Of a stretch of DNA of 18,714 nt, positions 1-16,254 are shown piece by piece. This stretch comes from a bacterium. Its GTDB lineage: Bacteria > CG2-30-53-67 > CG2-30-70-394. The notes beneath the pieces are model-generated. The model ran no database searches. It saw only the letters and a program-made list of their open reading frames with translations, and was not told where the DNA came from. The translations under genes and the position numbers were made by a program. The stretch spans positions 1-18,714 of the forward strand of contig JAJRSX010000082.1 in assembly GCA_024278555.1 (NCBI GenBank). Reading direction: 5' to 3'. Every line of letters starts with the position of its first letter. Position 1 is the stretch's first letter.

Positions 1-33
1 CACTCCGATCGTCTGCGTGGTAGCCTGCTTCAT
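1..33 (-). CDS. Partial CDS, 5' end only (first 11 codons), function unknown
   Basis: A minus-strand ATG sits at 33-31 and opens MKQATTQTIGV before the window ends. The start is credible because the bases just upstream on that strand read AAAGGAG (plus-strand 41-47), seven bases from the ATG, which is a near-ideal Shine-Dalgarno site. The gene points the same way as the cytochrome/porin cluster and lies 546 bases beyond its last member. It could be a further member of the cluster or the start of a separate unit. Eleven residues are too few for any functional call. Confidence 0.6.
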   Translation of the reverse strand, partial: MKQATTQTIGV

Positions 34-53
34 GGTCGCTCTCCTTTGCTTGT

Positions 54-96
54 GGGCTCCGAGCCCGTGGTTAGCATTGAGCCAGGTTAGAACCTG
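54..96. promoter_or_regulatory. Hairpin and operator-like palindrome upstream of the partial gene
   Basis: Two inverted repeats lie just upstream of the minus-strand partial gene. One is GGGCTC-C-GAGCCC (54-66). The other is a 14-base palindrome, CAGGTT-AG-AACCTG (83-96). The second has the size and symmetry of a dimeric repressor site. The first would lie in the leader and could fold in RNA. No convincing -35/-10 pair could be placed around them, so a regulatory role is inferred from position and symmetry only. Confidence 0.3.
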
Positions 97-351
97 AGCT
101 CGCGAGGAGAGCGGCCTCCTCATCCCATCTCTGTGGTGAAAAATCCCTTCCGGAAGCATTCCACCTCCCAGCCGAGGCGTGGAGCGACGCCGTACTTGGC
201 CTGCGTCGCTATTTCCGCTGATCCACAGAGTCGCAGAGGGGCGGGAGTCGGAGAGGGGGTGATGGTGTCATCGGTGGCCAATCTGGCGACTGTGTGGGGC
301 CGGAAGGCGGGGACAAATCCACGAAGGACACGAAGGGGAAGAGAGGCCTCC

Positions 352-382
352 GTAGGTTGTGCCAAGCGCAACACGGCGCACC
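352..382 (+). repeat. GTAG-headed REP-like element, single copy
   Basis: The element starts GTAGG, continues TGTGCCAAGCGCA and ends CGGCGCACC. It differs at only three of 31 positions from the element at 12970-13000. The ends (GTTGTGCC and GGCGCACC) are imperfectly complementary, giving a small stem-loop. The two related direct repeats at 316-338 and 396-420 bracket it. The GTAG head followed by an imperfect palindrome is the hallmark of REP sequences linked to RAYT (TnpA-REP) transposases. No such transposase is in the window. Confidence 0.6.
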
Positions 383-446
383 GGCGTCGCCACGGAATCC
401 ACGGAACGACACGAAAAGGGCGCGCCGTGGCATCCGGCGGGAGAGG

Positions 447-472
447 GTAGGAGCGGGCCGTGCCCGCGATCC
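447..472 (+). repeat. GTAG-headed REP-like palindrome (GTAGGAGCGGGC type)
   Basis: GTAG is followed by GAGCGGGC, CGT and GCCCGCGAT. The stem GCGGGC/GCCCGC is perfect, with a three-base loop. It closely resembles the well-known pseudomonad REP consensus beginning GTAGGAGCGGGC. It belongs to a different sequence family from the repeat at 352-382 but shares the GTAG head. Confidence 0.5.
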
Positions 473-501
473 GGCACCTGCGCCGCCGGCCGGGCCGCTG
501 A

Positions 502-520
502 GGCGTAGCAGCGCTACGCC
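502..520. repeat. Perfect hairpin downstream of the 13-heme cytochrome gene
   Basis: GGCGTAGC, a three-base loop, then GCTACGCC: an 8-bp perfect stem starting 60 bases past the cytochrome stop codon. No T-tract follows on the minus strand, so it is not a canonical intrinsic terminator. It could stabilise the 3' end of the mRNA or simply be another extragenic palindrome. Confidence 0.4.
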
Positions 521-579
521 GCAGGCGGAACGGCCGAGGACGCGGCGGAAAGATGGCGTGCAGGCGCCGCCGTCACCCG

Positions 580-1707
580 TTACTTGTGGCAGGTGCGGCA
601 GACCGGCTGCCGGTTTGGATTGAACTTCGACCGGAAGCCCGGCGGATGCGGGTTGATCCCGGCGCCGCCCACGGAGGCGTGGCAGGTGGTGCACACCGGC
701 GCCTTGGAGTCGTGGCAGGCCGCGCAGGCGACGATGTTGCGGCGGATGATCGACCGGTTCTCCGGGTGGCTGGCGATGCCGTGGCCCGAGGTGCCGATGG
801 CGGCCCCGAAGGGGTGGTTGTTGACCCCAAAGGGGTTGGCGCCGCCGGCGATGTAGCGCACCCCGGCGCGCTCGTGGCAGTCGGTGCAGGTGTTCACCCG
901 GTGGCAGCTCAAACACGGCTGCGGGTCGCGGCGCACGTCCTCCGGGTGGCGGGTGACGTAGTCACCCCGGTGGACCCGCTCGCGGCCCACCTCGGCGGGC
1001 CACTTCACCGACGCCTTCACCTGGTTGTAGACCCCCGAGTGGCAATCACTGCAAAACCGCTCCATGTGGCACTGGGCGCAGGCGGAGCCGTTGTCCTGCT
1101 GCGCCTGGAGCTTGTGGTTGTGGAGCCAGTCCCCCTGGTGGCGGAAGCGGGCGAGCTTCGGCTGGAAGCGCGGATCGGAGAGGTCGGCGTGGCACTGGCG
1201 ACACTGGAGGGCGTCGTACTGGGCCTGGTGGCACTGCATGCAGCTCTCCATGGTCGGCGTCTTGCCGTCGCCCGGCGCGGTGGAGGTGAGCATCGCCTCG
1301 TGGCAGACGGAGCAGTCGCTATCCACCCGCGCCACGTGGTTCTTGTGGGAGAAGTTCAGGCGGATCTCGCGCGGCGTGAGGCGCGGGATCGCCTGGGTCG
1401 CCGCCGCCTCCTGCAGCTTCGCCGGGGTGGCGTGGCAGGTGGTGCAGTCCGCCTCACCTACCTGGCCGTCCTCGTGGCACTGGCGGCACACCTCGAAGGT
1501 GGGGAGGTGGCGCTGCTCCACCTCGGTGGTGGCGCCGATGTCGGCGTGGCACTTGGCGCACGCCACCTCCATCTCCTTGGCGTGGAGCTGGTGGCTGAAG
1601 GTGAAGTGGGCCGCCGGCTTCTTGTGCAGGAGGTGGGCGCAGGCGGCCGCACCGACGATGGCGACGGCGACGAGGGCGAGACGGAGGGGGGTGCGTAGAG
1701 TTGTCAT
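580..1707 (-). CDS. Exported 13-heme c-type cytochrome, probable periplasmic partner of a porin-cytochrome conduit
   Basis: A 375-residue protein with 13 CXXCH haem sites, their first cysteines at 50, 74, 88, 132, 156, 169, 210, 219, 265, 274, 328, 339 and 370. The N-terminus (MTTLRTPLRLALVAVAIVG) is a secretion signal ending AAAC/ACA, so either a Sec signal or a weak lipobox is possible. The FSH...H...CXXCH spacing near residues 38-53 and 119-136 looks like cytochrome c3/c7-type modules. The likely role is to pass electrons across the periplasm into the adjacent outer-membrane porin. The start is ATG at 1707; an in-frame GTG at 1713 is possible, and no strong ribosome site is seen. It lies 64 bases after the porin gene, so it is probably cotranscribed. 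Haem count and export are seen; partner and direction are inferred. Confidence 0.9.
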   Translation of the reverse strand: MTTLRTPLRLALVAVAIVGAAACAHLLHKKPAAHFTFSHQLHAKEMEVACAKCHADIGATTEVEQRHLPTFEVCRQCHEDGQVGEADCTTCHATPAKLQEAAATQAIPRLTPREIRLNFSHKNHVARVDSDCSVCHEAMLTSTAPGDGKTPTMESCMQCHQAQYDALQCRQCHADLSDPRFQPKLARFRHQGDWLHNHKLQAQQDNGSACAQCHMERFCSDCHSGVYNQVKASVKWPAEVGRERVHRGDYVTRHPEDVRRDPQPCLSCHRVNTCTDCHERAGVRYIAGGANPFGVNNHPFGAAIGTSGHGIASHPENRSIIRRNIVACAACHDSKAPVCTTCHASVGGAGINPHPPGFRSKFNPNRQPVCRTCHK

Positions 1708-1771
1708 GGCCACACTCGGACGTGTTGGGGGTGCTACTCGAAGTAACGGCTCAGGCGCATCGGGGAACGAC

Positions 1772-3091
1772 TCACAGGAACTTGTAGACCAGCTTGAGGG
1801 TCCCGTTCAGCGACTCGCGGGAGGAGAGGCTCTCGTCCTCCACGGTGGCCGGGAGGCGCTGGCCGGTCGCGGCGGTGGAGAAATCGCGGTAATCGGCGCG
1901 GGTGCCGTAGTCGAGGGACACGCTCACCTCCCACTGCTCGCCGAGCTCGGCGCCCACGGTGGCCACCGTGTCGTGGCTGTAGTGGCGCTGGCTGGCCGGG
2001 AAGACGGGCTCGTCGAAGTTGTAGAGGGTGAAGTCGACCGCGTAGTAGAGGCGGGCGAGGTCGAAGCGGTTGGTCACCCGCGCCACCTCCTGGTTCACCC
2101 GGCCAAAGAGGTGGGTGACCTCGGAGAGCTCCTCGTGCTCGTAGCGCGCCCCCACCTCGTTGTCCATCCGCTCCCCCCAGCGGTAGCGTGCCTCGCCGCC
2201 GAAGGTCCACTCGTCGTCGCCCTCGCTGTAGTCGTACTGGCGGGCGTCGACGGCGAGGCGGACGTGGCGGCCGAGGTCGTAGTCGGCGCGGAAGCCGAGC
2301 TCCCGCTGCTCGCCGGTGGTGAAGATCTCGCTGCCGAAGATCGAGGTGTGCGACAGGAGCAGGCTCGGGAGGATGCGGCTGGCGTCGGCAGAGAGCAGCA
2401 GCCGCTCCGTGGTGGCCCAGGTGAGGAGCACCTGGCTGTCGTAGACCTCCTCGGAGATCCAGTCCCAGAAGGCGTGGCCGCTGGCGGTGACGCCGCCGCC
2501 CAACGCTCCCCAGCCGTCGATGCCGACGCGGGTGAAGGCGGTATGGTCGTTGTCGTGGGCCTCCATCGCCGAGAGGCCGAGCTCGAAGCGGCGCTGGCGC
2601 CAGAAGAGGCGGCCGCCCCCCTCCATGTCGCCGCTGTTGCCGCCGGAGTCGGAATCGACCTGCTGGCCCCCGAACAGCGAGACGCCGACGCCGTGGCCGG
2701 CGAGCCAGTCGACGGAGACGCCGTCGAGGTACTCGGTGGCGACCCCCTCGCGGACGAAGTGGCGGCCGGCGCGCAGGTCCACTCCGGTAGCGCGGTCGCG
2801 CCACTGGAGGTAGGCGTAGGTGAGGGTCCCGTCGAGGTCTTGGCCGAAGGTGCGCTCCCTGAGGTCGAGCTTGGCGAAGCCGTCGACATGGAGCGACAGG
2901 GGCGCGACCCCGAGGTCGCCCACGTCCAGGGCGAGAAACTCGTAGAGGGGCAACTGGTCCATATCGCCGTTGGCGTCGAACCGTTGCTGGCTGTAGGCGA
3001 GGGTGGTGAGTCGGCCGGACAGCTCCGCCGCGTGGGCCGGCAGGGCCACGCAGGCGGCCACGAGGGCCAGGGCGAGTAGACGCAGAGGCAT
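1772..3091 (-). CDS. Outer-membrane beta-barrel porin of a porin-cytochrome complex
   Basis: A 439-residue protein starting MPLRLLALALVAACVALPAH, a clear signal peptide with cleavage near A-H-A at residue 21. The mature part alternates short polar/aromatic beta-strand-like segments with acidic loops, has no cysteine pairs or haem sites, and ends in KLVYKFL, a beta-barrel-like C-terminus. Its position between two multihaem cytochrome genes points to the insulating porin sheath of an outer-membrane electron conduit (MtrB, OmbB or ExtB role). Its sequence is not recognisably close to MtrB. The ATG at 3091 has GGAGGAGG four bases upstream. The next gene starts 64 bases downstream. Barrel fold and partner are inferred from composition and context. 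Confidence 0.8.
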   Translation of the reverse strand: MPLRLLALALVAACVALPAHAAELSGRLTTLAYSQQRFDANGDMDQLPLYEFLALDVGDLGVAPLSLHVDGFAKLDLRERTFGQDLDGTLTYAYLQWRDRATGVDLRAGRHFVREGVATEYLDGVSVDWLAGHGVGVSLFGGQQVDSDSGGNSGDMEGGGRLFWRQRRFELGLSAMEAHDNDHTAFTRVGIDGWGALGGGVTASGHAFWDWISEEVYDSQVLLTWATTERLLLSADASRILPSLLLSHTSIFGSEIFTTGEQRELGFRADYDLGRHVRLAVDARQYDYSEGDDEWTFGGEARYRWGERMDNEVGARYEHEELSEVTHLFGRVNQEVARVTNRFDLARLYYAVDFTLYNFDEPVFPASQRHYSHDTVATVGAELGEQWEVSVSLDYGTRADYRDFSTAATGQRLPATVEDESLSSRESLNGTLKLVYKFL

Positions 3092-3211
3092 GGATCCTCC
3101 TCCCGATGGGTGGTGCCGTCCGGGGGCGGGCGGCGGTGCTCCTCCAAAACGGTGGCGGCCTCCCACCACCGGGCGGCAGTGAAGCGCAACGGATGGGGCG
3201 GGTCAACATCG

Positions 3212-3237
3212 CTTTTTTTCGCTGGGGCGAAAAAAAG
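3212..3237. repeat. Second, AT-rich hairpin overlapping the terminator T-tract
   Basis: CTTTTTTTCGC (3212-3222), a four-base loop, then GCGAAAAAAAG (3227-3237): an 11-bp perfect inverted repeat. Its right arm is the same A/T run that serves as the U-tract of the terminator at 3229-3268. The two structures therefore cannot form fully at the same time in RNA, which would allow competition between them. Confidence 0.6.
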
Positions 3238-3268
3238 AAAAAGGGGGCGGGCCGATCGGCCCGCCCCC
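3229..3268 (-). terminator. Intrinsic terminator between the surface cytochrome and porin genes
   Basis: Reading the minus strand after the surface cytochrome stop codon, a perfect 26-base GC palindrome (3268-3243, half-site GGGGGCGGGCCGA) is followed directly by TTTTTCTTTTTTT (3242-3230). This is the form of a strong Rho-independent terminator. It sits 35 bases past the stop of the 8-heme gene and about 140 bases before the porin start. It could end transcription there or let only part of it read through to the porin and 13-heme cytochrome. Confidence 0.8.
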
Positions 3269-3305
3269 GAAGGCCCCGCCGGAGCGGGGGAGAGGGTTAG
3301 TTCGG

Positions 3306-5543
3306 TTACTCGGCTGCCGGTTCCGTCAGCGTCGCGTGGCAGACCCCGCACTTGTTCGTCCAGCCGGCGGGCGTCACCTCGGTCTTGCTGCCCTTCGCGG
3401 TGAGCATCGCCTCGATGGCGGACTTCGGCATCACGTCGAAGGTGTGGGAGCGGATGTCCCCCTCACGGAAGCCGTTCGTCTGGGTCTCATTCCACCGTGC
3501 CGTCTTCGCGGTCTTCGGCATGTGGCAGGTGATGCAGCGGCCCATCTTCGACCCTTCGGGGTCATAGTCGGACTTCGCCATGAGGCCGCCGGTGTCGGTG
3601 GCTGCCACCTCCGTGCCGATGTGGCCCATGACCGCGGTGCCGATCACCGCGTCGGCGGCGCCGCCGTCCTTCAGGGTATCGACCATGGCACGGGTGATCG
3701 TGCCAAAGCCGCCCTTGGTCACCTTGCTCCCGTTGTGGCACTCGAGACAGAGGGCGTTGTTGTCGGCGTTGTAGGTGATCTGGTGCTCCAGGCCGGTGCC
3801 GCCGTGGGCGTCGTGGCAGTCGATGCAGGTGACCATCTGCACGTCGTTCTTGAACATCGTGCCGCGCACCTCATCGTAGTACTGCTGGTGGTGGCCCTTC
3901 GAGTGGTTGAGGGCGGCACCGCGCTGGGCATCGTGCCACACGTGACCGTCATTGTCGGCATCGGCGTAGCTGATCGCCTCCCAGTACTCGGTCTGCTGGC
4001 CGAAGTCGGGGGCGGCCTGCGAGGTGCCGTACATCTGCGCCGGGGACATGCCGGCGCGGAAGATGTTGATGGAGCTGTCCGTGGTCAGGTCGCCCTTTGA
4101 GGCGAAGCCGGCGTGGGCGCCACTGCCGTCGAGGATGCTACCGCCGTGGCCGCGCTGGTGGCAGGCGCCGCAGACCATGTTCAACCGTCCCGGAGTGAGG
4201 AGGTCGGGCTGGACGATCGCCTTGCCGGCGCCGCCCGCGGCCACGTGCTCCGAGCCGGGGCCGTGGCACCGCTCACAGCCGATGTTGCCGGCGTAGACGT
4301 CCGGGTCGATCTGGTCGATGTACTGGGTGATGAAGTGGCCGGCGGTGTCCTTGGTGATCGCCACGCCGCCGTGGCAGCCGCCGCAGTCAACACCGAAGGA
4401 CTCGGTGGGGGCACCCATCGGGGTGCCGGTGGTGGCGTCCGTGGACTCGGGCGCGAAGACGTTGTCGCCGTCTGCGGTGGGCGGGATCCACTTGCCGGAG
4501 AACTCGCCGTTCTCGCCGAAGGCGGCGGGGAAGGCGTCGGACATGTTCGACTCGTTCCACTGGAACGGCGCCGGGTAGTAGTAGGCGTCGCCGCCCGCCG
4601 CCACATGGCTTGTCCCCGGCCCGCCATCGGGGCCGACGAGAAGCATGAACCGCTGCTTGTAGAGCCCCTCACCGCCGTAGGTGAAGGCGACGTAGTAGGT
4701 GGCGGAGAGGAAGCCGTCACAGGTGTCGTTGTCCGCCATCTGCATGGAGTAGCCGTTCGTGGCATCCCAGCCGAGCTGGGCGTAGTGGGTGTGCCCCTTC
4801 GCCCCGAAGCTGATGCATTCGCCGTTGGTAAAGGCGTCGAGCCCCTTGTTGGCGACGTCCGGGAAGCCGGTGAGCTCCTGGAGGCTGTTCGTCTTCCCCG
4901 GGACGCGGAAGCCGAGGAAGTGGAGGGTGTGCTTGAGGCCCGTCTTGTCGGAGGCGAGCGTGCCGTCGTGGCAGTTAAGGCAGGTGGCCGAACCGACGAA
5001 GGTGGCGGCTGCGGAGGGGTTGGCGGAGATCTCGATGTCACCCTCGGAGGCGACCGCCGAGGTGGTGACGACCTGGCCGCTGGTCACGGTGAGCGCCTCA
5101 CGGCTCGGGGTCGACGGGAGGTGGCCCGTGTCGGTGGCCGCGGGGATCACCACCGCGTAGTAGGTGCCGTCCGCCACCGCACCCTCGGGGATGGAGTAGG
5201 TGCCGTCGGCGGCGGTGGTGACCACGTAGCCGGTGGCGCCGGCCTTGGTGGAGGTACCGGAGCTATCGGCGTTGGCGATCACCGCGTTGGCCACATCCTC
5301 CATCGGCTGGACGGAGTTCGCTGCCTCCACGTCCGCCGCCGAGACGAGGACCACGGAGGCGGCGGCGACCGGATCACCGCCGGTGTCGGTCACCGTGCCG
5401 CTGGACAGCACGGCGGGGGTTCCGCCCCCACCGCCCCCGCCACCGCCATCAAACCAGTTGGCGCAGCCGGTGAGGGTGCCGGCTACCAGGAGAGTCCCGG
5501 CGGCCATGGCGCCGAGGCGCCACCATGCGTTGTGCATCTTCAT
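3306..5543 (-). CDS. Surface lipoprotein multihaem cytochrome c (8 haem sites) with an N-terminal carboxypeptidase-regulatory-like domain
   Basis: A 745-residue protein. Residues 1-27 are a lipoprotein signal with lipobox L-T-G-C (Cys27), followed by a nine-glycine linker. Residues about 46-165 resemble a carboxypeptidase-regulatory beta-sandwich (GTVTDTGGDPVAAASV). Eight CXXCH sites start at C188, C387, C423, C458, C573, C599, C670 and C732; CERCHGPGSEH and CIDCHDAHG recall the cytochrome c554-like superfamily. About 195 residues between haems 1 and 2 have no haem site. The likely role is the cell-surface terminal of the electron conduit. The chosen ATG at 5543 gives the signal peptide and has GGAGG seven bases upstream; the reading frame extends to 5714, but that adds a non-signal stretch. 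Haem count and lipobox are seen; surface exposure is inferred. Confidence 0.9.
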   Translation of the reverse strand: MKMHNAWWRLGAMAAGTLLVAGTLTGCANWFDGGGGGGGGGTPAVLSSGTVTDTGGDPVAAASVVLVSAADVEAANSVQPMEDVANAVIANADSSGTSTKAGATGYVVTTAADGTYSIPEGAVADGTYYAVVIPAATDTGHLPSTPSREALTVTSGQVVTTSAVASEGDIEISANPSAAATFVGSATCLNCHDGTLASDKTGLKHTLHFLGFRVPGKTNSLQELTGFPDVANKGLDAFTNGECISFGAKGHTHYAQLGWDATNGYSMQMADNDTCDGFLSATYYVAFTYGGEGLYKQRFMLLVGPDGGPGTSHVAAGGDAYYYPAPFQWNESNMSDAFPAAFGENGEFSGKWIPPTADGDNVFAPESTDATTGTPMGAPTESFGVDCGGCHGGVAITKDTAGHFITQYIDQIDPDVYAGNIGCERCHGPGSEHVAAGGAGKAIVQPDLLTPGRLNMVCGACHQRGHGGSILDGSGAHAGFASKGDLTTDSSINIFRAGMSPAQMYGTSQAAPDFGQQTEYWEAISYADADNDGHVWHDAQRGAALNHSKGHHQQYYDEVRGTMFKNDVQMVTCIDCHDAHGGTGLEHQITYNADNNALCLECHNGSKVTKGGFGTITRAMVDTLKDGGAADAVIGTAVMGHIGTEVAATDTGGLMAKSDYDPEGSKMGRCITCHMPKTAKTARWNETQTNGFREGDIRSHTFDVMPKSAIEAMLTAKGSKTEVTPAGWTNKCGVCHATLTEPAAE

Positions 5544-5649
5544 GCTCCATCCTCCGTGAGAGGGGTTGGGAATGTGGGGTCGGGGATCGACCCCGAGGGC
5601 AGGAGGGCGGCCGCTTCGGTCGTCCCGGGGTAGGCTTTGGTATGCGCAG

Positions 5650-5671
5650 TGCACCGCCTCTCTTCGGTGCA
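5650..5671. promoter_or_regulatory. Hairpin in the presumed leader of the cytochrome operon
   Basis: TGCACCG (5650-5656) and CGGTGCA (5665-5671) form a 7-bp perfect stem with an eight-base loop, about 107 bases upstream of the surface cytochrome ATG. A nearby GTATGC (from 5640) could pair instead with GCATAC of the right arm, giving an alternative fold. No known riboswitch consensus was recognised. If the promoter lies upstream, this would be in the 5' leader. Confidence 0.3.
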
Positions 5672-5699
5672 TACGGCAACAACATAACACCTTTATTAG

Positions 5700-6040
5700 G
5701 CGACTGTGTTGCATATGATTCGTGCGTGGCAGGCCATGCGCGGTGGTTTTCGGAATCGGACAGCCACCACGATCGGATACCTACATACGCCTCTATCGGG
5801 GTCGCTTCAAGTCCCCGAAAAAACGACCTTCAACTCGCGGCTTGACGCGAGGGCGACAGGTAACCGGTAAAAAAAGTTATTAAGAATATTGCGTAATACG
5901 ACTACTCCCCGAAGTATCGCGGGTAACCGTAATTAAGCGCACAAAGTCTTTTATCTGGCTCATCCGTGTGTCCCCGGTTGCAGTGAGGACACCGCGCCCG
6001 CGGTCGATGGGTGGCGCGCCCTCACCGCCCGCGACGGCCC
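5700..6040. promoter_or_regulatory. AT-richer intergenic region upstream of the cytochrome operon, with spaced direct repeats
   Basis: No gene is seen in the 497 bases between the surface cytochrome start and the hemN stop. The stretch around 5860-5955 is much richer in A/T than the flanking genes. It carries GGTAACCG twice (5859-5866 and 5922-5929), 63 bases apart, each followed by a TTAAG a few bases on. A 6-bp hairpin CTCGCG/CGCGAG lies at 5834-5851. This is the natural place for the operon promoter and activator sites, but no confident -35/-10 or -24/-12 pair could be assigned on the minus strand. Confidence 0.4.
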
Positions 6041-7429
6041 TCACACGGTGCGCGAATACATCGGCTTGGCGCCGTCGGCCTGCTCGCCGAGGTAGGCGTC
6101 AAAGGGCATCGCCAGGTTGCGGATGAAGACGCGGCCGAGCTCGGTGACCCGGAGGCTCGTGTCGTCGATCTCGATGAGGGCGTCGTCGGCCGGCTCCTTG
6201 AGCTGCTCCAGGGCGTCGGCGAAGTAGGCGTCGAACTCGATCCCAAAGTCCGCCTCCACCGTGGGCTTGTCCACCACCAGGTTGACCAGCAGATCGGAGA
6301 TCACCCGCTTTCGCAGCTTGTCGTCGTCGGTGAGCAGGATGCCGCGCATGGTGGGCCACTCTCCCGCCTCCACCGTGCGGGTGTAGGCGGAGAGCTTGCG
6401 GGTGTTCTGGGCGTAGCAGTCGCCCACCTCGGAGATGGAGGAGACGCCGATGCCGTAGAGGTCGGTGTTCGCCTTGGTGGTGTAGCCCATGAAGTTGCGG
6501 TGCAGGGTGTGGTCCTCCTGCGCCAGGGAGAGCTCGTCGTCCGGCTTGGCGAAGTGGTCCATGCCGATGTAGCGGTAGCCCGCCTCGGTGAACTGCTCGA
6601 TGGTGTTGGTGAGGATGGTCACCTTGGCGTCGCCGCCGGGGATGTCGGCCTCGTCGAAGCGCCGTTGGAAGGGGCGCATCCACGGCACGTGGGCGTAGTT
6701 AAAGAGGGCGATGCGCGCCGGATCCAGGGAGATGATCTTCTCCACCGTCGGGATGAAGGACTCCGGGGTCTGCTTGGGCAGGCCGTAGATGAGGTCGACG
6801 TTGAGCTCGTTGAAGCCGCGCGCCCGACACTGCTCCATGAAGTCGCGGGTCATCTCGTAGGGCTGGATGCGGTTTACCGTCTTCTGGACCTCGTGGTCGA
6901 AGTCCTGGATCCCCATGGAGACACGGGTGAAGCCGTTGGCCTTGAGGACATCGAGGTGGTCGGTGGAGGTGATCCGGGGATCGACCTCCATGGAGACCTC
7001 GGCGTCGGCGGCGAAGTTGAACCGCTCGCGGAAGCCGGAGAGCAGCCGGTCAAGCTGGTCCGGGCGCATGAAGGTGGGGGAGCCGCCGCCGATGTGCCAC
7101 TGGACCACCTCCCGGCCTGCGGCCATCAGCGCCTGGTACCACTCCGCCTCGCGGAAGAGGTGGGCGGCGTACGGGTCGGCGTGGTCGGTGTCGCCGCTGA
7201 TGATGATGTTGCAGCCGCAGTAGTAGCACATCGATTCACAGAAGGGGATGTGGGTGTAGAGCGCCAGGGGCGGCGGATCGGCCTCGGCGTTGGTGCGCTC
7301 GATCTCGGCGCGGAGCTCGGGGGCGGCGAACGCCTCGGTCCACTGGGGCGCGGTCGGGTAGCTCGTATAACGCGGTCCGGCCTGGTCGTAGCGGACGAGC
7401 ATCTCATGGGGGACAAAGAGGCGGCTCAC
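6041..7429 (-). CDS. hemN: Oxygen-independent coproporphyrinogen III dehydrogenase (radical SAM)
   Basis: HemN converts coproporphyrinogen III to protoporphyrinogen IX anaerobically in the cytoplasm, using S-adenosylmethionine and a 4Fe-4S cluster. The 462-residue product matches the usual size. It has GPRYTSYPTAP near residues 18-28 and the HemN cluster motif C64-x3-C68-x2-C71-x-C73 after H-IPF. It also has GGGSPTF at 114-120, where GGGTPT is commoner, and the family pattern NVDLIYGLPKQT in mid-protein. The start is taken as GTG at 7429, which has AGGAG six bases upstream; an ATG at 7402 would remove nine residues. It reads in the same direction as the cytochrome operon, which begins 497 bases downstream. 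Supplying haem for the 21 haem sites there is a plausible, inferred link. Confidence 0.97.
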   Translation of the reverse strand: MSRLFVPHEMLVRYDQAGPRYTSYPTAPQWTEAFAAPELRAEIERTNAEADPPPLALYTHIPFCESMCYYCGCNIIISGDTDHADPYAAHLFREAEWYQALMAAGREVVQWHIGGGSPTFMRPDQLDRLLSGFRERFNFAADAEVSMEVDPRITSTDHLDVLKANGFTRVSMGIQDFDHEVQKTVNRIQPYEMTRDFMEQCRARGFNELNVDLIYGLPKQTPESFIPTVEKIISLDPARIALFNYAHVPWMRPFQRRFDEADIPGGDAKVTILTNTIEQFTEAGYRYIGMDHFAKPDDELSLAQEDHTLHRNFMGYTTKANTDLYGIGVSSISEVGDCYAQNTRKLSAYTRTVEAGEWPTMRGILLTDDDKLRKRVISDLLVNLVVDKPTVEADFGIEFDAYFADALEQLKEPADDALIEIDDTSLRVTELGRVFIRNLAMPFDAYLGEQADGAKPMYSRTV

Positions 7430-7528
7430 GTGGGGCTCCTGAGAAGGAAATATAGACGAGGGGCGATCGTACCACGGTCGGCAGACTGCGCCCGTGTCGT
7501 GAGTCAGCCTTGTCGGGCAGCGCCGCGG

Positions 7529-7615
7529 TGGTGCCGAAGGGGGGACTCGAACCCCCACGGGAAACATCCCACTGCCCCCTCAAGACAGCGTGTCTACCAG
7601 TTCCACCACTTCGGC
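7529..7615 (-). tRNA. tRNA-Leu (anticodon GAG), CCA encoded
   Basis: The minus strand starts GCCGAAG at 7615 and ends CTTCGGC-A-CCA at 7529, pairing as a 7-bp acceptor. The D-arm region reads GTGG...GGTAGACAC. The anticodon stem CTGTC/GGCAG encloses loop TTGAGGG, giving anticodon GAG (plus-strand 7579-7581). A long variable arm of the leucine type follows, then a T-arm with GGGGG-TTCGAGT-CCCCC. The discriminator is A and the 3' CCA is in the genome. It lies about 100 bases upstream of hemN on the same strand. Confidence 0.96.
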
Positions 7616-7646
7616 ACGAAGCCCGACGGCTCGCGGAGGGAGGGGG

Positions 7647-7675
7647 AGGGTAGGAACCACCCCGCGAGGGGTCAA
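7647..7675 (-). promoter_or_regulatory. Probable sigma-70 promoter of tRNA-Leu
   Basis: On the minus strand, TTGACC (7675-7670) and TACCCT (7652-7647) are separated by exactly 17 bases. The -35 matches five of six consensus bases and the -10 three of six. The predicted start leaves a leader of roughly 25 bases before the mature tRNA. The spacer holds a CCCC-GCGA-GGGG inverted repeat. A GC-rich stretch near the start point would fit stringent control of tRNA, but that is inference. Confidence 0.5.
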
Positions 7676-7686
7676 GGGGCGCATGG

Positions 7687-7715
7687 CTGACACCCGCGGC
7701 CGCAGCGGGTAAAAG
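7687..7715 (+). promoter_or_regulatory. Possible promoter directly before the solute-binding protein gene
   Basis: CTGACA (7687-7692) and TAAAAG (7710-7715) lie 17 bases apart on the plus strand. They match five and four of six consensus bases. The transcription start would then fall at or next to the ATG at 7723, giving a leaderless mRNA. Alternatively, AAAGGGA (7712-7718) is simply the ribosome site and the real promoter is elsewhere. The element is divergent from the tRNA promoter and 12 bases from it. Confidence 0.35.
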
Positions 7716-7722
7716 GGACGCC

Positions 7723-9780
7723 ATGTGGACGCGGCGGCTGATGCTCTTCTTGCCCCTGGTGGTGGTGGCGGTGCTGTTTCAGTCATACCTGTGGGTGCCC
7801 ACCTATGCGCGGCAGACGGTGGGCAACCCGGAGCGGTTGGTGCGCTACATCGACGCGGGGATCGGCGACGCGGCGATCCTCAATCAGGTCCTCAACGCCG
7901 ACTCGGCGAGCGCCAACATCGTGTCGCGTTGCTTCGACGGGCTGCTCGATTACGACGAGGAGCTGCACTTGCGTGGGCGGCTGGCCACCGACTGGTCGAT
8001 CACCGAGCGGGCCGCCTTCCCTCTCGCCGACGGCGTGGACGGGGAGGCGGTGGCGCGGCGGGTGCAGCGGGTGCTCGGCGACACCGTGGCCGGGGTGGAG
8101 GTGGAGGCGGCGCGTGCGGCAGAGGTGCCGATCACTCTGGAGGCGGATGGGCCGGAGGTGGCGATCTCGGTGCGCCGGCCCCGCTACCTCCATCTGCGGT
8201 TGAAGAGGGTGGTGCCGGACCTCTTCGACCGTCTGGCGCCCCTGCTCGCCGCCGCCCGCTTGGGGGCGTCGGCGCGCGTCGGGCGGGTGGCGGCGCCGGG
8301 GGTGGACGGCCGAGCCCTCACCCCCCACCTCGACGAGCTGCTGCCGCTCGCGGTGGAGCGGCCGGTGATCGACTTTCGGTTGCGTGAGGGCGTCCGCTTC
8401 CACGATGGCCACCCCTTCACCGCCGAGGATGTCCTGTTCACCTGGCGGGCGATCATGGACCCGCGGAATGTGTCGCCGCGCGCCTCGGATTTCGAGCCGA
8501 TCGAGACGATCGAGGTGGTGAACCCGTACGAGGTGCGGGTGGTCTACAAGCGGCTCTTCTCGCCGGCGATCACCGCCTGGACCATCGGCATCCTCCCGGA
8601 GCACCTCCTGAACCGCCAGGCCCTGGAGCGGGAGGCGGTCGCCAAGGGGCTCACCGGCGAGCCCCTCGCCCACTTCGGGATGCGCGATTCGAGCTTCAAC
8701 CGCCATCCCATCGGCACCGGCCCCTTCCGCTTTGTCTCGTGGTCGTCGGATGAGGAGATCGTCCTCGCCCGCTTCGACGGCTACTGGGAGGGGCCGCCCG
8801 AGTATCGCGACTACGTCTACCGGGTCCTGCCGGACCTCTTCATCCAGGAGCTGGAGTTCCGCGCCGGCACCATCGACACCTACGGCGCCGAGCCGCACCA
8901 GGTGGCGCGCTACAAGAGGGACCCGAAGTATCAGCCCTTCTCGCGCCTCGGGAGCGGCTACTCCTACATCGGCTACAACCTGCGCCAGCCGATGTTCCAG
9001 GACGTGCGGGTGCGCCGTGCCCTGGGGATGGCGGTCGATGTGGAGCAGATCATCCGCTACCTCCTCTACGGCGAGGGGGAGCGGGTGACCGGCCCGTACC
9101 CGCGCACCACCCCGTGGTACGACCCCACGGTGAAGCCGCTGCCGTTTGATCCGGCGGCGGCGGGGCGGTTGCTGGACGAGGCGGGGTGGCATCTCGGTCC
9201 CGACGGTATCCGCGTCAAGGACGGCCAACGCCTCGCCTTCACCCTGATCACCAACCACGGCAACGCCCAGCGCAAGGCGATCGGCACTATCGTGCAAGAT
9301 CAGTGGCGCAAGATCGGCGTCGACTGCTCCTTCCAGCTCTTCGAGTGGGCGGTCTTTTTGAAGGACTTCATCAACCCGGGCCGCTTCGACGCCTGCATCC
9401 TCGGTTGGTCCATGGGGCCCGACTTCGACCTCTTCCAGCTCTGGCACTCCTCCCAGACCCACCCGCAGCAGCTCAACTTCGTCGGCTACGCCAACCGGTC
9501 GGCGGATCGGCTCATCGAGCGGCTCCGGCGGACCTACGACGAGCCCACCCGGATCCGCCTCGCCCGCCGCCTGCACCGGACCATCGCCGCCGACGCCCCC
9601 TACACCTTCCTCTACGCGCCGCGCGGCACCACGGTGCTCGACAAGCGCATCGTGGTGGTCAAACACAACCCCGACGGGAGCGAGCGGTACGAGCGGATCC
9701 GGCCGACGAAGTCCGGGGAGATCGGCTTCTACTTCAACCGCTGGCGGAAGCTGGCGGAGGCGCCGGTGTTTACAGAGTAG
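7723..9780 (+). CDS. Family 5 extracellular solute-binding protein (oligopeptide-type), with an extra internal domain
   Basis: A 685-residue protein with an N-terminal hydrophobic segment (residues about 6-26, LMLFLPLVVVAVLFQSYLWV) that may be an uncleaved anchor or a signal peptide. The core matches the SBP_bac_5 family: FDGLLDYDEELHLRGRLATDW (71-91), FRLREGVRFHDGHPFTAEDV (218-237), then the later RRALGMAVDVEQI and GWSMGPDFD regions. It should capture peptides or similar ligands outside the membrane for an ABC importer. Between LATDW and FRLREGV there are about 125 residues where family members usually have only a short link, so an inserted domain is likely. No permease or ATPase gene is adjacent. 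The ATG at 7723 has AAAGGGA upstream. Confidence 0.87.
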   Translation: MWTRRLMLFLPLVVVAVLFQSYLWVPTYARQTVGNPERLVRYIDAGIGDAAILNQVLNADSASANIVSRCFDGLLDYDEELHLRGRLATDWSITERAAFPLADGVDGEAVARRVQRVLGDTVAGVEVEAARAAEVPITLEADGPEVAISVRRPRYLHLRLKRVVPDLFDRLAPLLAAARLGASARVGRVAAPGVDGRALTPHLDELLPLAVERPVIDFRLREGVRFHDGHPFTAEDVLFTWRAIMDPRNVSPRASDFEPIETIEVVNPYEVRVVYKRLFSPAITAWTIGILPEHLLNRQALEREAVAKGLTGEPLAHFGMRDSSFNRHPIGTGPFRFVSWSSDEEIVLARFDGYWEGPPEYRDYVYRVLPDLFIQELEFRAGTIDTYGAEPHQVARYKRDPKYQPFSRLGSGYSYIGYNLRQPMFQDVRVRRALGMAVDVEQIIRYLLYGEGERVTGPYPRTTPWYDPTVKPLPFDPAAAGRLLDEAGWHLGPDGIRVKDGQRLAFTLITNHGNAQRKAIGTIVQDQWRKIGVDCSFQLFEWAVFLKDFINPGRFDACILGWSMGPDFDLFQLWHSSQTHPQQLNFVGYANRSADRLIERLRRTYDEPTRIRLARRLHRTIAADAPYTFLYAPRGTTVLDKRIVVVKHNPDGSERYERIRPTKSGEIGFYFNRWRKLAEAPVFTE

Positions 9781-9931
9781 GGAGCAGGGAAGTAGGGATA
9801 TAGGGAGGTAGGGGAGGAGAGCCTTCGGGCTGACAAAGATGCCGATAGAAGCCACCCACGAAACCAATCGATGGCCGCGACAACGGCCCTCCACCCCCCT
9901 CTCCCCACATCCCTATCTCCCGACTCCCTGA
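9778..9931. repeat. Inverted pair of G-tract arms between the solute-binding protein gene and crcB
   Basis: The left arm (9778-9823) begins with the TAG stop codon and has GGG tracts at roughly heptad spacing: GGGAGCAGGGAAGTAGGG and onward. The right arm (about 9885-9931) is its imperfect reverse complement, about 35 of 46 positions matching by eye. It runs up to the crcB ATG. The 61-base centre has no gene. Each arm fits a G-quadruplex pattern on one strand. As RNA the arms could form a long stem. No Shine-Dalgarno site is visible before crcB because the right arm occupies that position. Confidence 0.6.
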
Positions 9932-10309
9932 ATGAAGACCCTCCTCCTTGTGGGCGCCGGCGGCTTCTTCGGCGCGGCGGCGCGCTACCTGGTGGCGACC
10001 GCCGCCCACGCCGTGCTCGGCGCCCGCTTCCCGTACGGGACCCTGGTGGTGAACGTGGCCGGGTCGCTGTTGCTCGGCCTCTTCCTCGCCGTCGGCGACG
10101 GCCATCTGGGGCTGATCCCGCCGGCCACCCGGGCGGTGGTGGCGGTGGGCTTCTTCGGCGCCTTCACCACCTTCTCCACCTTCTCCTACGAGTCGTTCCA
10201 GTTGCTGGCCACCGGCAGCTGGTGGCTCGGGGCGGGGAACATCGTCGCCAACCTCTGCCTCTGCCTCTCCGCCACCGCCGCCGGCATCGCGGTGGGGCGG
10301 CTGTGGTAG
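9932..10309 (+). CDS. crcB: Fluoride ion channel CrcB/Fluc
   Basis: A 125-residue inner-membrane protein with four hydrophobic segments, the usual size of a single Fluc subunit, which acts as an antiparallel dimer exporting fluoride. Family motifs are all present: GAGGFFGAAARY (8-19), GTLVVNVAGSLLLG (36-49, with the conserved Asn41) and GFFGAFTTFSTFSYE (73-87, the phenylalanine-rich filter with conserved threonines). A single gene rather than a tandem pair implies a homodimer. No clear ribosome site precedes the ATG. A fluoride riboswitch was looked for in the 151 bases upstream and not recognised. Confidence 0.97.
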   Translation: MKTLLLVGAGGFFGAAARYLVATAAHAVLGARFPYGTLVVNVAGSLLLGLFLAVGDGHLGLIPPATRAVVAVGFFGAFTTFSTFSYESFQLLATGSWWLGAGNIVANLCLCLSATAAGIAVGRLW

Positions 10310-13133: not shown

Positions 13134-14294
13134 ATGTACACGCGCTCACTCCAGCCGGCTCCCTCCAAGAGCTGGTTTCTGTTCGGACCTCGGCAGACCG
13201 GGAAGAGCACCCTGGTGCGCTCCCTTCTGGGGCCGGACGACCTCTATATCGACCTCCTGCCTCAGCGGAGCTTTCTCAACTACGCGAAGAGTCCCGGGCG
13301 GCTCCGGGAGGAGGTCGAGGCGCACCGCAGACGGCACGGTGACTTCACCTGCGTGATCGACGAGGTCCAGAGGATCCCCACCCTCCTGGACGAGGTGCAC
13401 GCGCTCATCGAGTCCACCGGGCTCACCTTCATCCTCACCGGATCCAGCGCGCGCAAGCTGCGCCGGGGTGGCTCGAACCTGCTGGCCGGGCGCGCCTACA
13501 CCTACCGCCTCTTCCCCCTGACCTTCACCGAGCTGGGCGACGCCTTCGACCTCGACCGCGCCCTGCGTGCCGGATGCCTACCGCCGGTGTGGACGGGCGA
13601 CGAGCCCGACTGGCGGGAGTTCCTCCGCGCCTATTCCGAGACCTACCTGCGGGAGGAGGTGGCCGCCGAGGGGCTGGTGCGCAACATCGGCCCGTTCAGC
13701 CAGTTTCTCGACATCGCCGCAGCCAATGACGGCGAGATCGTCAACTTCACCAACGTCGCGCGGGAGTGCGGGGTCTCGGTGAAGACCGCGCAGCAGTACT
13801 ACCAGATCCTCGAAGACACCTTTCTCGCCACCCGCGTACCGGCGTGGCGCAAGAGCGCGCGCAAGCGGCTGGTCTCCCATCCCCGCTACTACATTTTCGA
13901 CCCAGGCGTGACCAACGCCCTTACCCACACCCTCGGCGCCGACCTGGATCCGAAGACGCGGGAGCGCCGCTTCGAGCAGCTCGTCATCAATCAGATCGCC
14001 GCGGCCATCCACTACCGGCGCCTCGACTACCAGCTCCACTACTGGCGCACCCACCACGGCGCCGAGGTGGACCTGCTCATCGGTCGCGGCAGCGAGGTTC
14101 TGTGTGCCGTGGAGATCAAGTCCTCCCGCAACATCGTCAAGGAGGGGCTGGACGGGATCACGAGCTTCCGCGCCGACCACCCGCGGACCCCGATCTTTGT
14201 CCTCGGCGACCGCCGGAACCGCCGCCTCCTCGCAGAACAGATCACCGTCCTGAGCTGGGACGACTTCATCCGCGAGGAGCTGGCGTCGCTGTGA
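13134..14294 (+). CDS. AAA+ ATPase with DUF4143-type C-terminal domain
   Basis: A 386-residue cytoplasmic protein. It has a Walker A motif GPRQTGKST (18-26), Walker B TCVIDEVQR (72-80), and the sensor-like LTGSSARKLRRGGSNLLAGR (101-120) typical of AAA_14. A winged-helix-like part follows (about 180-240), then a C-terminal region with YWRTHHGAEVDLLI (303-316) and VEIKSS (326-331). The D313 and E327-x-K329 pattern is that of a PD-(D/E)XK-like fold. Cellular roles of this widespread family are not established; nucleic-acid handling or defence-type accessory roles are only guesses. It stands alone, preceded by a REPIN-like repeat and convergent with metG 31 bases away, which suits an accessory gene between housekeeping units. 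All motifs look intact. Confidence 0.95.
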   Translation: MYTRSLQPAPSKSWFLFGPRQTGKSTLVRSLLGPDDLYIDLLPQRSFLNYAKSPGRLREEVEAHRRRHGDFTCVIDEVQRIPTLLDEVHALIESTGLTFILTGSSARKLRRGGSNLLAGRAYTYRLFPLTFTELGDAFDLDRALRAGCLPPVWTGDEPDWREFLRAYSETYLREEVAAEGLVRNIGPFSQFLDIAAANDGEIVNFTNVARECGVSVKTAQQYYQILEDTFLATRVPAWRKSARKRLVSHPRYYIFDPGVTNALTHTLGADLDPKTRERRFEQLVINQIAAAIHYRRLDYQLHYWRTHHGAEVDLLIGRGSEVLCAVEIKSSRNIVKEGLDGITSFRADHPRTPIFVLGDRRNRRLLAEQITVLSWDDFIREELASL

Positions 14295-14325
14295 CCGGTG
14301 GCGACGCCGGCAACCGGCGACCGGG

Positions 14326-16254
14326 TTACCGGATCCGGCTCCCCGGCGGCGGGCCGTCGGGGACGGCGATCAGGGTGAGGTGGTCGGGGCCGTCGCCGGT
14401 GGCCAGGACCATCCCCTCGGAGCGTACCCCGAAGAGCTTCGCCGGCTTCAGGTTGGCGACCACCGCCACCCGCCGACCGACCACCGCCTCGGCCCCGTAG
14501 CTCTGGCCGATGCCGGCAACGATGGTACGTGGCGCCTCCTCGCCCACGTCGACGGTGAGCGCCAGCAGCTTGTCGGAGCCGGGGATCGCCTCGGCCTCGC
14601 GCACCACGCCGACGCGCAGGGCCACCCGGGCGAAGTCGTCGATGTTGATCCGGCCGTCCGCCGTGGACTTCGGCACCGTCTCCCGGCTGTTGCTCGTCTC
14701 CTCCACCTTTTTCTTCTTCTCTTCTTGGGCCTTCGCCCCCTTGGAGCCCGCCGCCCTCTCCACCTCGATGCGCGGGAAGAGCGGTGCCGCCTCGCCGAGG
14801 GGGGTGCCGGCGGGGGGGCCGCCCCACGCCGGCGTGGCCGGCTCCGGGCTGCCGAGCTGGGTGAGGAGCTCGCGCCCCTTCACCGGCATCACCGGGCTCA
14901 CCATGAGGGCGACCAGCCGCAGCCCCTCCAGCAGGTTGCGCAGGACCCCGCGCAGGCGCGGCCGCGCCGCCTCCTCCTTGGCCAGGGCCCACGGCTCGCT
15001 CTCCACCACGTACTGGTTGAGGCGGCCGATGAGCCGCCACACCGACTTGAGCGCCTCGTGGAAGGCGAGGCGGGCCATCGCCTCGCGCCACTGCCCGATC
15101 GCCGCCGCCGCCTCGTCCGCCAGGGGGGGCGCGGCGGCGTCCGCCTCGGGCCACCTCCCCTCTTCGTAGCGGCGCACCATGGTGAGCACCCGGCTGGCGA
15201 GGTTGCCGAGGTCGTTGGCGAGATCGGCGTTGATCCGCCGCACCAGGGCGGCCTCGGAGAAGTCGGCGTCCAGCCCGAAGGTCGCCTCGCGCAGGAGGAA
15301 GTAGCGGAAGGGGTCGGCGCCGTAGGCGTCGATGATCGCGTTCGGGTCGACCACGTTGCCTACCGACTTGCTCATCTTCGCCCCGTCGATGGTCCACCAG
15401 CCGTGGGAGAAGATCTGCTCCGGCAGGGGGAGCCCGGCGGCGAGGAGGAAGCAGGGCCAGTAGACCGCGTGGAAGCGGAGGATGTCCTTGCCGATGACGT
15501 GCACCCTCGCCGGCCACTGGCGGGCGAAGCGGGCCGCGTCGTCCGGGTAGCCGGCGCCGGTGAGGTAGTTGATCAGGGCGTCGAACCAGACGTAGACCAC
15601 GTGCTGCGGGTTGTCCGGGACCGGGACCCCCCACGAAAACGTGGTGCGGGAGATGGAGAGGTCCCTAAGGCCGCCCTCCACGAAGCGGAGGATCTCGTTG
15701 CGCCGGACCTCCGGCTCGATGAAGTCGGGGTGGCTGCGGATGTGGTCCAACAACCGCTCCTGGTAGGCGGACATGCGGAAGAAGTAGCTCTCCTCCGCCA
15801 GCTTGGTCACCTCCCGGTGGCAGTCGGGGCAGTGGCCGTCATCGTCGAGCTGGAGCTCGGTCCAGTACGACTCGCACGGGGTGCAGTACCAGTCCTCGTA
15901 GCTGCCGAGGTAGATGTCGCCCTTGGCCTCCAGCTCGCGGAAGAGGTGCTGCACCGCCTTGGCGTGGCGTGGCTCGGTGGTGCGGATGAAGTCGTCCGGG
16001 GCGATCTCCAGCCGCTCCCACACCCCCTGGAACCGCTTCACCACCCGGTCGGCGAGGGCGATCGGCTCGATCCCCTCCGCCTTGGCGGAGGTCTCCACCT
16101 TCTGGCCGTGCTCGTCGGTGCCGGTGAGGAGGAAGGTCTCCTCCCCCAGCAGGCGGTAGAAGCGGGCGAGGGTATCGGCGGCCACCGAGGTGTAGGCGTG
16201 GCCGATGTGGGGGACGTCGTTGACGTAGTAGATCGGGGTGGTGATATAGCGCAT
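14326..16254 (-). CDS. metG: Methionyl-tRNA synthetase with C-terminal tRNA-binding domain
   Basis: A 642-residue cytoplasmic enzyme charging tRNA-Met and initiator tRNA. It is a class I synthetase with HIGH at 16-19 (VPHIGHAYTS), KMSKS at 293-297, and a single zinc-type knuckle C124-x2-C127 with C142-x2-C145. The anticodon-binding helical domain follows (about 340-465). A charged linker rich in E and K (about 500-530) leads to an EMAPII/Trbp111-type OB fold (about 537-642, INIDDFARVALRVG...GMVLA), which aids dimerisation and tRNA binding. The ATG at 16254 has GGAG five bases upstream; upstream in-frame codons are not synthetase sequence. It is the last gene of the holB-ricT-metG run, 88 bases after ricT. 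Confidence 0.98.
   Translation of the reverse strand: MRYITTPIYYVNDVPHIGHAYTSVAADTLARFYRLLGEETFLLTGTDEHGQKVETSAKAEGIEPIALADRVVKRFQGVWERLEIAPDDFIRTTEPRHAKAVQHLFRELEAKGDIYLGSYEDWYCTPCESYWTELQLDDDGHCPDCHREVTKLAEESYFFRMSAYQERLLDHIRSHPDFIEPEVRRNEILRFVEGGLRDLSISRTTFSWGVPVPDNPQHVVYVWFDALINYLTGAGYPDDAARFARQWPARVHVIGKDILRFHAVYWPCFLLAAGLPLPEQIFSHGWWTIDGAKMSKSVGNVVDPNAIIDAYGADPFRYFLLREATFGLDADFSEAALVRRINADLANDLGNLASRVLTMVRRYEEGRWPEADAAAPPLADEAAAAIGQWREAMARLAFHEALKSVWRLIGRLNQYVVESEPWALAKEEAARPRLRGVLRNLLEGLRLVALMVSPVMPVKGRELLTQLGSPEPATPAWGGPPAGTPLGEAAPLFPRIEVERAAGSKGAKAQEEKKKKVEETSNSRETVPKSTADGRINIDDFARVALRVGVVREAEAIPGSDKLLALTVDVGEEAPRTIVAGIGQSYGAEAVVGRRVAVVANLKPAKLFGVRSEGMVLATGDGPDHLTLIAVPDGPPPGSRIR

What the first reader, a model, noticed from the sequence alone, without database searches (positions are those of the whole stretch)
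580..5543. Porin-cytochrome conduit with a 13-heme exported and an 8-heme surface cytochrome
The sequence shows three minus-strand genes: a lipoprotein cytochrome with 8 CXXCH sites, a signal-peptide-bearing beta-barrel candidate, and an exported cytochrome with 13 CXXCH sites. Known conduits (MtrCAB, OmbB-OmaB-OmcB, ExtABCD) have the same logic but different haem counts and domain make-up. The gene order here (surface cytochrome, porin, inner cytochrome) and the N-terminal carboxypeptidase-regulatory-like domain suggest a distinct conduit type. I infer extracellular electron transfer; the direction of flow is unknown.
Basis: partly seen in the sequence, partly recalled or inferred. Interest (0 to 1): 0.65.

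Follow-up and report, generated by a model that had tools for sequence, protein, structure and literature searches.

The report
Porin-cytochrome electron conduit of known type
Three neighbouring genes in an uncultured groundwater-type bacterium encode a barrel-shaped outer-membrane channel, a 13-haem protein wire and an 8-haem surface protein that together very probably pass electrons across the outer membrane; this is a member of the already known porin-cytochrome (Pcc) family, not a new type of conduit.

Summary
In detail: 580-1713 (-) encodes an exported 13-CXXCH cytochrome, 1772-3091 (-) a signal-peptide beta-barrel, 3306-5543 (-) an 8-CXXCH lipoprotein. The order is conserved in the one other genome of the genus held (G001, Nitrospirae bacterium CG2_30_70_394, phylum Ca. 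Omubiota). The conduit reading is well supported; the 'distinct conduit type' reading is not. Porin and 13-haem genes form a conserved adjacent pair across many phyla: 56 of 140 genomes of one Myxococcota-containing group have a 13-haem homologue, and all 20 loci inspected have the porin directly upstream. The pair is homologous to porin/5-haem and porin/8-haem pairs with the gene architecture of ExtBCD and OmbB-OmaB-OmcB; the 5-, 8- and 13-haem inner cytochromes share one pentahaem core with an HRGD(W/Y)xxxH-type motif. Shi et al. 2014 already described Pcc inner cytochromes of 5-14 haems, and surface-porin-inner order is common in the relatives. Added here: a modular 5+5+3 haem reading, likely lipidation of the 13-haem protein, a terminator between surface and porin genes, and a surface cytochrome of restricted distribution. 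The genome has dsrAB and a DsrL-like protein, so sulfur oxidation coupled to extracellular electron transfer is plausible but untested. Direction of flow is unresolved.

The parts
3306..5543 (-). P0003: 745-aa 8-haem (CXXCH at residues 188, 387, 423, 458, 573, 599, 670, 732) lipoprotein cytochrome, candidate surface subunit
   Evidence: lipobox LTGC at Cys27; Pfam MtrC/MtrF domain II/IV above cut-off (33.2 vs 30 bits)
5004..5411 (-). N-terminal beta-rich domain of P0003 (residues ~45-180), CarboxypepD_reg-like at best
   Evidence: E 0.023, below cut-off; same region of the G001 orthologue E 2e-4, also below cut-off
3243..3268 (-). intrinsic terminator (11 G-C pairs, then TTTTTCTTTTTTT) between the P0003 and P0002 genes; a hairpin plus T-run stands at the same place in G001
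   Evidence: G001 sequence; coordinates
3201..3206 (-). TTGACC box downstream of the terminator, followed 17-18 nt later by TTCACT in both G000 and G001; possible own promoter of the porin-cytochrome unit (inference)
   Evidence: the sigma-70 scan did not score it
1772..3091 (-). P0002: 439-aa porin-like outer-membrane beta-barrel with signal peptide (about 20 strands in the model; 18-stranded barrels are the best matches)
   Evidence: family alignment A4; tree
580..1713 (-). P0001: 377-aa 13-haem inner cytochrome (start GTG 1713 or ATG 1707), possibly lipid-anchored at Cys25
1228..1560 (-). N-terminal five haems of P0001 (residues 52-162; spacing 24-14-44-24)
874..1203 (-). core five haems of P0001 (residues 171-280; spacing 41-9-46-9, with HRGDYVTRH), shared with 5-haem and 8-haem relatives
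586..726 (-). C-terminal three haems of P0001 (residues 330-376; spacing 11-31)

Best explanation
This is a porin-cytochrome (Pcc) outer-membrane electron conduit. P0002 forms an outer-membrane barrel (shown as a model only); the 13-haem P0001, probably tethered by an N-terminal lipid, threads or docks in it as a haem wire (inferred from family and architecture); P0003, an 8-haem lipoprotein, sits on the outer face and exchanges electrons with something outside the cell (inferred). The 13 haems read as 5 + 5 + 3: a core pentahaem shared with 5-haem and 8-haem relatives, a C-terminal trihaem shared with the 8-haem ones, and an extra N-terminal pentahaem that would lengthen the wire into the periplasm. 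Porin and inner cytochrome are the conserved core; the surface gene upstream ends in its own terminator and is the exchangeable part. Electron direction is not determined.
For: Barrel: model with about 20 antiparallel strands, pLDDT 70-85 in the middle; the PDB matches with E up to 0.001 (47) are barrels, led by AlgE and including MOMP, sucrose porin and OccK. Adjacency in samples drawn by one gene only: 20 of 20 loci drawn by the cytochrome have the porin directly upstream; 19 of 20 drawn by the porin have an inner cytochrome directly downstream, the other ends at a contig end. Co-evolution: porin and cytochrome distances correlate at r = 0.75, 0 of 999 permutations as high. Homology beyond haem motifs: HRGD(W/Y)xxxH (HRSDFxxxH in OmaB-like rows) inside the core of most 5-, 8- and 13-haem rows. 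Known-architecture relatives: L157 tandem porin/8-haem/surface sets as in ombB-omaB-omcB and ombC-omaC-omcC, L158 11(+1 atypical)-haem/porin/5-haem/9-haem as in extABCD (PMC6148476, PMC4245776). In the porin tree the window lies with other 13-haem pairs beside the 5-haem ExtB-like clade (SH-aLRT 94). Enough histidines for bis-His ligation: 17 beyond the CXXCH ones for 13 haems.
Against: No experiment. Barrel model mean pLDDT is only 54 (3 sequences). The P0003 model failed (pLDDT 30), so surface position rests on the lipobox, the MtrC-like domain and analogy. A terminator separates P0003 from the other two, so P0003 might not be a stoichiometric subunit. The lipobox of P0001 (AAAC) is weak.
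Confidence: 0.86

Rival explanations
1. A two-component conduit (P0001-P0002, 13 haems, able to span the membrane alone as proposed for Anaeromyxobacter and Kuenenia) with P0003 a separately regulated extracellular cytochrome or reductase that merely lies next door.
For: Intrinsic terminator between P0003 and P0002 in both species; porin-13-haem pair with no further haem gene nearby in L160 and in L115; a P0003-like protein in G002 is the C-terminal half of a 1665-aa 16-haem protein with no porin nearby.
Against: P0003-P0002-P0001 order is kept in G001, and a surface-type cytochrome precedes the pair in about half of the Myxococcota loci.
Confidence: 0.25
2. A member of the MtrCAB family (MtrA/DmsE decahaem, MtrB/PioB barrel, MtrC decahaem).
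For: Same division of labour; Pfam MtrC/MtrF domain II/IV just over cut-off in P0003.
Against: No MtrA/DmsE match for P0001 and no MtrB/PioB match for P0002 in Pfam or NCBIfam, no PDB sequence match to MtrA or MtrB, barrel matched to 18-stranded ones rather than MtrB, 13 rather than 10 haems, P0003 21.7 bits against a cut-off of 209 for OmcA/MtrC.
Confidence: 0.02
3. A respiratory enzyme system for nitrite, sulfite or another oxyanion rather than a wire.
For: P0003 has weak partial similarity to NrfH/NrfB and GSU2203/DmsE-type cytochromes; P0001 has partial c7/QrcA similarity.
Against: All such matches are far below family cut-offs and cover short haem segments; no CXXCK active-site motif in either protein; no molybdenum enzyme or reductase gene among the window neighbours that were scanned.
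Confidence: 0.05

Closest known systems
Pcc gene clusters with large inner cytochromes: Anaeromyxobacter spp., Ca. Kuenenia (12-14 haems, 338-344 aa), Ignavibacterium album IALB_1838 (14 haems, 400 aa) (Shi et al. 2014, PMC4245776)
   Same: Porin of 18-22 strands next to an inner cytochrome of 12-14 haems; 13-haem homologues with porin abound in the group searched from a Myxococcota genome
   Different: The window also has an 8-haem lipoprotein in front; Anaeromyxobacter and Kuenenia clusters are two-gene; sequence identity to those named proteins not measured
ExtABCD of Geobacter sulfurreducens (PMC6148476)
   Same: Porin plus inner cytochrome with the same pentahaem core as the 5-haem ExtC-like proteins of extABCD-architecture loci; ExtB is reported with 18 strands, like the best barrel matches here
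   Different: No separate 12-haem ExtA; inner cytochrome has 13 instead of 5 haems; different surface cytochrome; different gene order
OmbB-OmaB-OmcB / OmbC-OmaC-OmcC of Geobacter (PMC4245776)
   Same: Three-part conduit; 8-haem OmaB-like inner cytochromes align with the C-terminal eight haems of P0001 (spacing 32-9-46-9-45-10-32)
   Different: 13 vs 8 haems; 8-haem vs 12-haem surface cytochrome; a separate clade in the porin tree
MtrCAB of Shewanella (PMC7198977, from the abstract listed)
   Same: Works alike: barrel, inner wire, surface cytochrome
   Different: No detectable sequence relation of barrel or wire, smaller barrel, different haem counts

Membership tests
Pcc (porin-cytochrome) conduit | Porin-like outer-membrane barrel of about 18-22 strands with signal peptide | tested here: met
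   best matches 18-stranded barrels; model confidence moderate
Pcc (porin-cytochrome) conduit | Adjacent gene for an exported inner cytochrome with 5-14 haems | tested here: met
   13 haems, 58 bp downstream of the porin; pair conserved across phyla
Pcc (porin-cytochrome) conduit | Outer-membrane lipoprotein cytochrome in most clusters | tested here: met
   P0003 lipobox LTGC, 8 haems; surface position itself not testable
Pcc (porin-cytochrome) conduit | Sequence homology of porin and inner cytochrome to OmbB/OmaB or ExtB/ExtC | tested here: inconclusive
Pcc (porin-cytochrome) conduit | Electron transfer across a lipid bilayer by the complex | not testable with these tools
   needs purified complex in proteoliposomes
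MtrCAB | MtrA/DmsE-type decahaem inner cytochrome | tested here: not met
   no TIGR03508 match for P0001, no MtrA hit in PDB, 13 haems
MtrCAB | MtrB/PioB barrel | tested here: not met
   no Pfam or NCBIfam match, no PDB sequence match, fold matches are other barrels
MtrCAB | OmcA/MtrC decahaem surface cytochrome | tested here: not met
   TIGR03507 21.7 bits vs cut-off 209.3; 8 haems; only a domain-level Pfam PF22113 match
ExtABCD | 12-haem periplasmic ExtA + porin + 5-haem + 12-haem cytochromes | tested here: not met
   no ExtA-like gene, 13-haem inner and single 8-haem surface cytochrome; the contig ends at 1, but no further haem gene follows in G001
Nitrite/sulfite reductase systems | family match above cut-off or catalytic haem motif (CXXCK) | tested here: not met
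   NrfH, NrfB, NrfA, DsrJ matches all below cut-off; no CXXCK

The most novel reading that the evidence does not exclude
The inner cytochromes of Pcc conduits that were reported as unrelated (ExtC-type 5-haem, OmaB-type 8-haem, 13-haem) are one family built by adding haem modules to a common pentahaem core. In Ca. Omubiota the 13-haem, lipid-anchored form makes one continuous wire through the barrel and deep into the periplasm, replacing a separate periplasmic cytochrome such as ExtA and draining electrons from a reverse-Dsr sulfur oxidation pathway to extracellular acceptors.
Probability: 0.3. Interest if true: 0.5.

Novelty: new member of a known kind. Interest (0 to 1): 0.28.

Why it matters
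It adds an uncultured phylum (CG2-30-70-394, Ca. Omubiota) to the probable extracellular electron exchangers with a Pcc conduit, and shows that the 13-haem form of the Pcc inner cytochrome is common in the Myxococcota-containing group sampled. The shared pentahaem core gives one profile with which 5-, 8- and 13-haem conduits can be found together, instead of by separate models for OmbB, ExtB/ExtE and ExtI. Together with dsrAB and a DsrL-like protein in the same genome it makes sulfur oxidation coupled to extracellular acceptors a concrete hypothesis for the phylum.

Tried and rejected
AlphaFold of P0003 with two rows failed (pLDDT 30); not used. Structure prediction was limited to loci its rules allow, so the barrel had only three rows. 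tblastn of P0001 and P0002 in plasmids: nothing. MtrCAB membership rejected by profile searches. Nitrite/sulfite reductase reading rejected (below cut-offs, no CXXCK). A fourth conduit gene downstream cannot be excluded in the window (contig ends at 1; a start MKQATTQTIGV with a good Shine-Dalgarno lies at 33-1), but in G001 no further haem gene follows the 13-haem gene to the contig end. 'Single operon' not accepted because of the terminator.
Full report
What is there. The window is the whole of contig C51 of a 3.06-Mb genome. The three genes are at the stated places on the minus strand, far beyond chance in haem motifs. The whole genome is haem-rich: the CXXCH DNA pattern is found 420 times against 124 for the reversed control.

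The barrel. P0002 has no family match, but its model is a run of about 20 antiparallel strands and every PDB match with E up to 0.001 is a beta-barrel; the top ones are AlgE and Campylobacter MOMP, 18-stranded barrels (strand number from general knowledge). MtrB is not among them. ExtB is reported with 18 strands and Pcc porins with 18-22 (PMC6148476; PMC4245776). The model's mean confidence is 54, so strand count is approximate.

The wire. P0001 has 13 haems with spacing 24-14-44-24-13-41-9-46-9-54-11-31. The same spacing recurs, within a few residues, in most of the 13-haem relatives. The 5-haem relatives have 32/39-9-45-12, that is the middle five haems; the 8-haem ones have 32-9-46-9-45-10-32, the middle five plus the last three. 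Between haems 8 and 9 of the window protein lies HRGDYVTRH; HRGD(W/Y/F)xxxH or a close variant is found at this place in 5-haem and most 13-haem rows, and HRSDFxxxH in OmaB-like 8-haem rows, so the relation does not rest on CXXCH alone. The modular reading N5+core5+C3 follows. It bears on the statement in PMC6148476 that no component of the Ext and Omc complexes shares homology, with the caveat that the genomes here are unnamed. In 22 of 26 13-haem rows a cysteine closes the hydrophobic N-terminal stretch (two or three of these may be accidental), which suggests lipidation; the window's own lipobox (AAAC) is weak.

The pair is the unit. P0001's profile finds a match in 56 of 140 genomes drawn from the phylum of G098, the genome holding the Myxococcota locus L002; all 20 loci inspected have a porin gene directly upstream, often overlapping. 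The porin profile finds 31 of 247 genomes of the phylum of G099, a Thermodesulfobacteriota genome; 19 of 20 loci have an inner cytochrome downstream, with 5, 8, 10-11 or 13 haems. L157 shows two tandem porin/8-haem/surface sets and L158 an 11(+1 atypical)-haem/porin/5-haem/9-haem set, the architectures of the Geobacter omcBC region and extABCD (PMC6148476). Porin and cytochrome trees agree on the main groups and their distances correlate at r = 0.75 (0 of 999 permutations as high). That correlation does not remove shared species history. The window's porin falls with other 13-haem pairs next to the ExtB-like clade (SH-aLRT 94, quick method, long branches).

The surface subunit. P0003 is a lipoprotein (LTGC) with one haem after an N-terminal beta-rich domain, a further segment with two non-haem cysteines (243, 275), and seven more haems. 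Only the C-terminal part reaches a curated Pfam cut-off for MtrC/MtrF domain II/IV (33.2 vs 30 bits). The carboxypeptidase-regulatory-like call is below cut-off in P0003 and in the G001 orthologue. Among 98 genomes it was found only in G000, G001 and, as the C-terminal half of a 16-haem protein, in G002; one more relative lies about 7 kb from a porin/13-haem pair in L118. So P0003 is the replaceable part, as PMC6148476 reports for Geobacter surface lipoproteins. In many Myxococcota relatives a larger cytochrome of 16-34 haems stands at this place instead, in the same gene order as the window; the order is thus not distinctive.

Transcription. A strong intrinsic terminator (11 G-C pairs and a T-run) lies between P0003 and P0002, and G001 has a hairpin with a T-run at the same place. 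Both species have TTGACC-N17/18-TTCACT just downstream, a possible promoter for the porin-cytochrome pair. This is inference; the scan did not score it.

Direction and physiology. The genome has dsrA (two copies, 517-518 bits), dsrB and, between them, a pyridine-nucleotide oxidoreductase in the position and size of DsrL, in line with the report that this phylum has DsrL-1 and lacks dsrD, suggesting oxidative sulfur metabolism (PMC10591310). It also has a cbb3-type oxidase and a 9-haem protein with an NrfH/NapC-like part. One MAG of the phylum was listed as carrying iron-reduction genes (PMC12501874), and sulfur oxidation with extracellular Fe(III) is predicted for 37 phyla and shown in Desulfurivibrio (PMC12545173). 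Export of sulfur-derived electrons is the likelier direction, perhaps 60:40 as a judgement; uptake is not excluded.

Novelty. Pcc with large inner cytochromes is known since 2014. I rate this a new member of a known kind, with modest added value in the modular haem reading, the terminator and the restricted surface cytochrome.

Noticed in passing
L051:6394-8703 (G005) and L053:8230-10512 (G007), same class as the window: A porin of ~765 aa: P0002-like barrel, proline/alanine-rich linker, ~100-aa unassigned domain, then a 4-haem class III cytochrome (PF02085 E 3e-13); a barrel carrying its own periplasmic cytochrome, followed by a 5-haem ExtC-like gene. Shi 2014 reports one porin-like cytochrome (GM18_3465).
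   Followed up: partly
L050:8910-13904 (G002:C22): A 1665-aa protein with 16 CXXCH whose C-terminal half is 64% identical to P0003; no porin gene found beside it.
   Followed up: partly
L175 (G000:C162) 8626-9876 and 13439-14680: Two dsrA genes (both ~517 bits to TIGR02064) about 5 kb apart, flanking dsrB and a DsrL-like oxidoreductase gene.
   Followed up: partly
window 310-430: CACGAAGGACACGAAGG-type repeat in the non-coding stretch downstream of the conduit.
   Followed up: no
window 6041-7567 (-): hemN-type (oxygen-independent coproporphyrinogen oxidase) gene next to the cytochrome cluster, with tRNA-Leu(GAG) at 7529-7615; the longest ORF start overlaps the tRNA, so the true start is further in.
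   Followed up: no
L057 (G001:C180) 4613-10242: A second, distant P0002-like porin in G001 next to frames with 29 and 20 CXXCH; no counterpart was reported in G000.
   Followed up: no
L058 (G001:C22) 1-1212 (-): The G001 orthologue of P0003 carries a MopE-type metal-binding motif (PF11617, E 2.8e-9) near its N terminus that was not found in the window protein.
   Followed up: no
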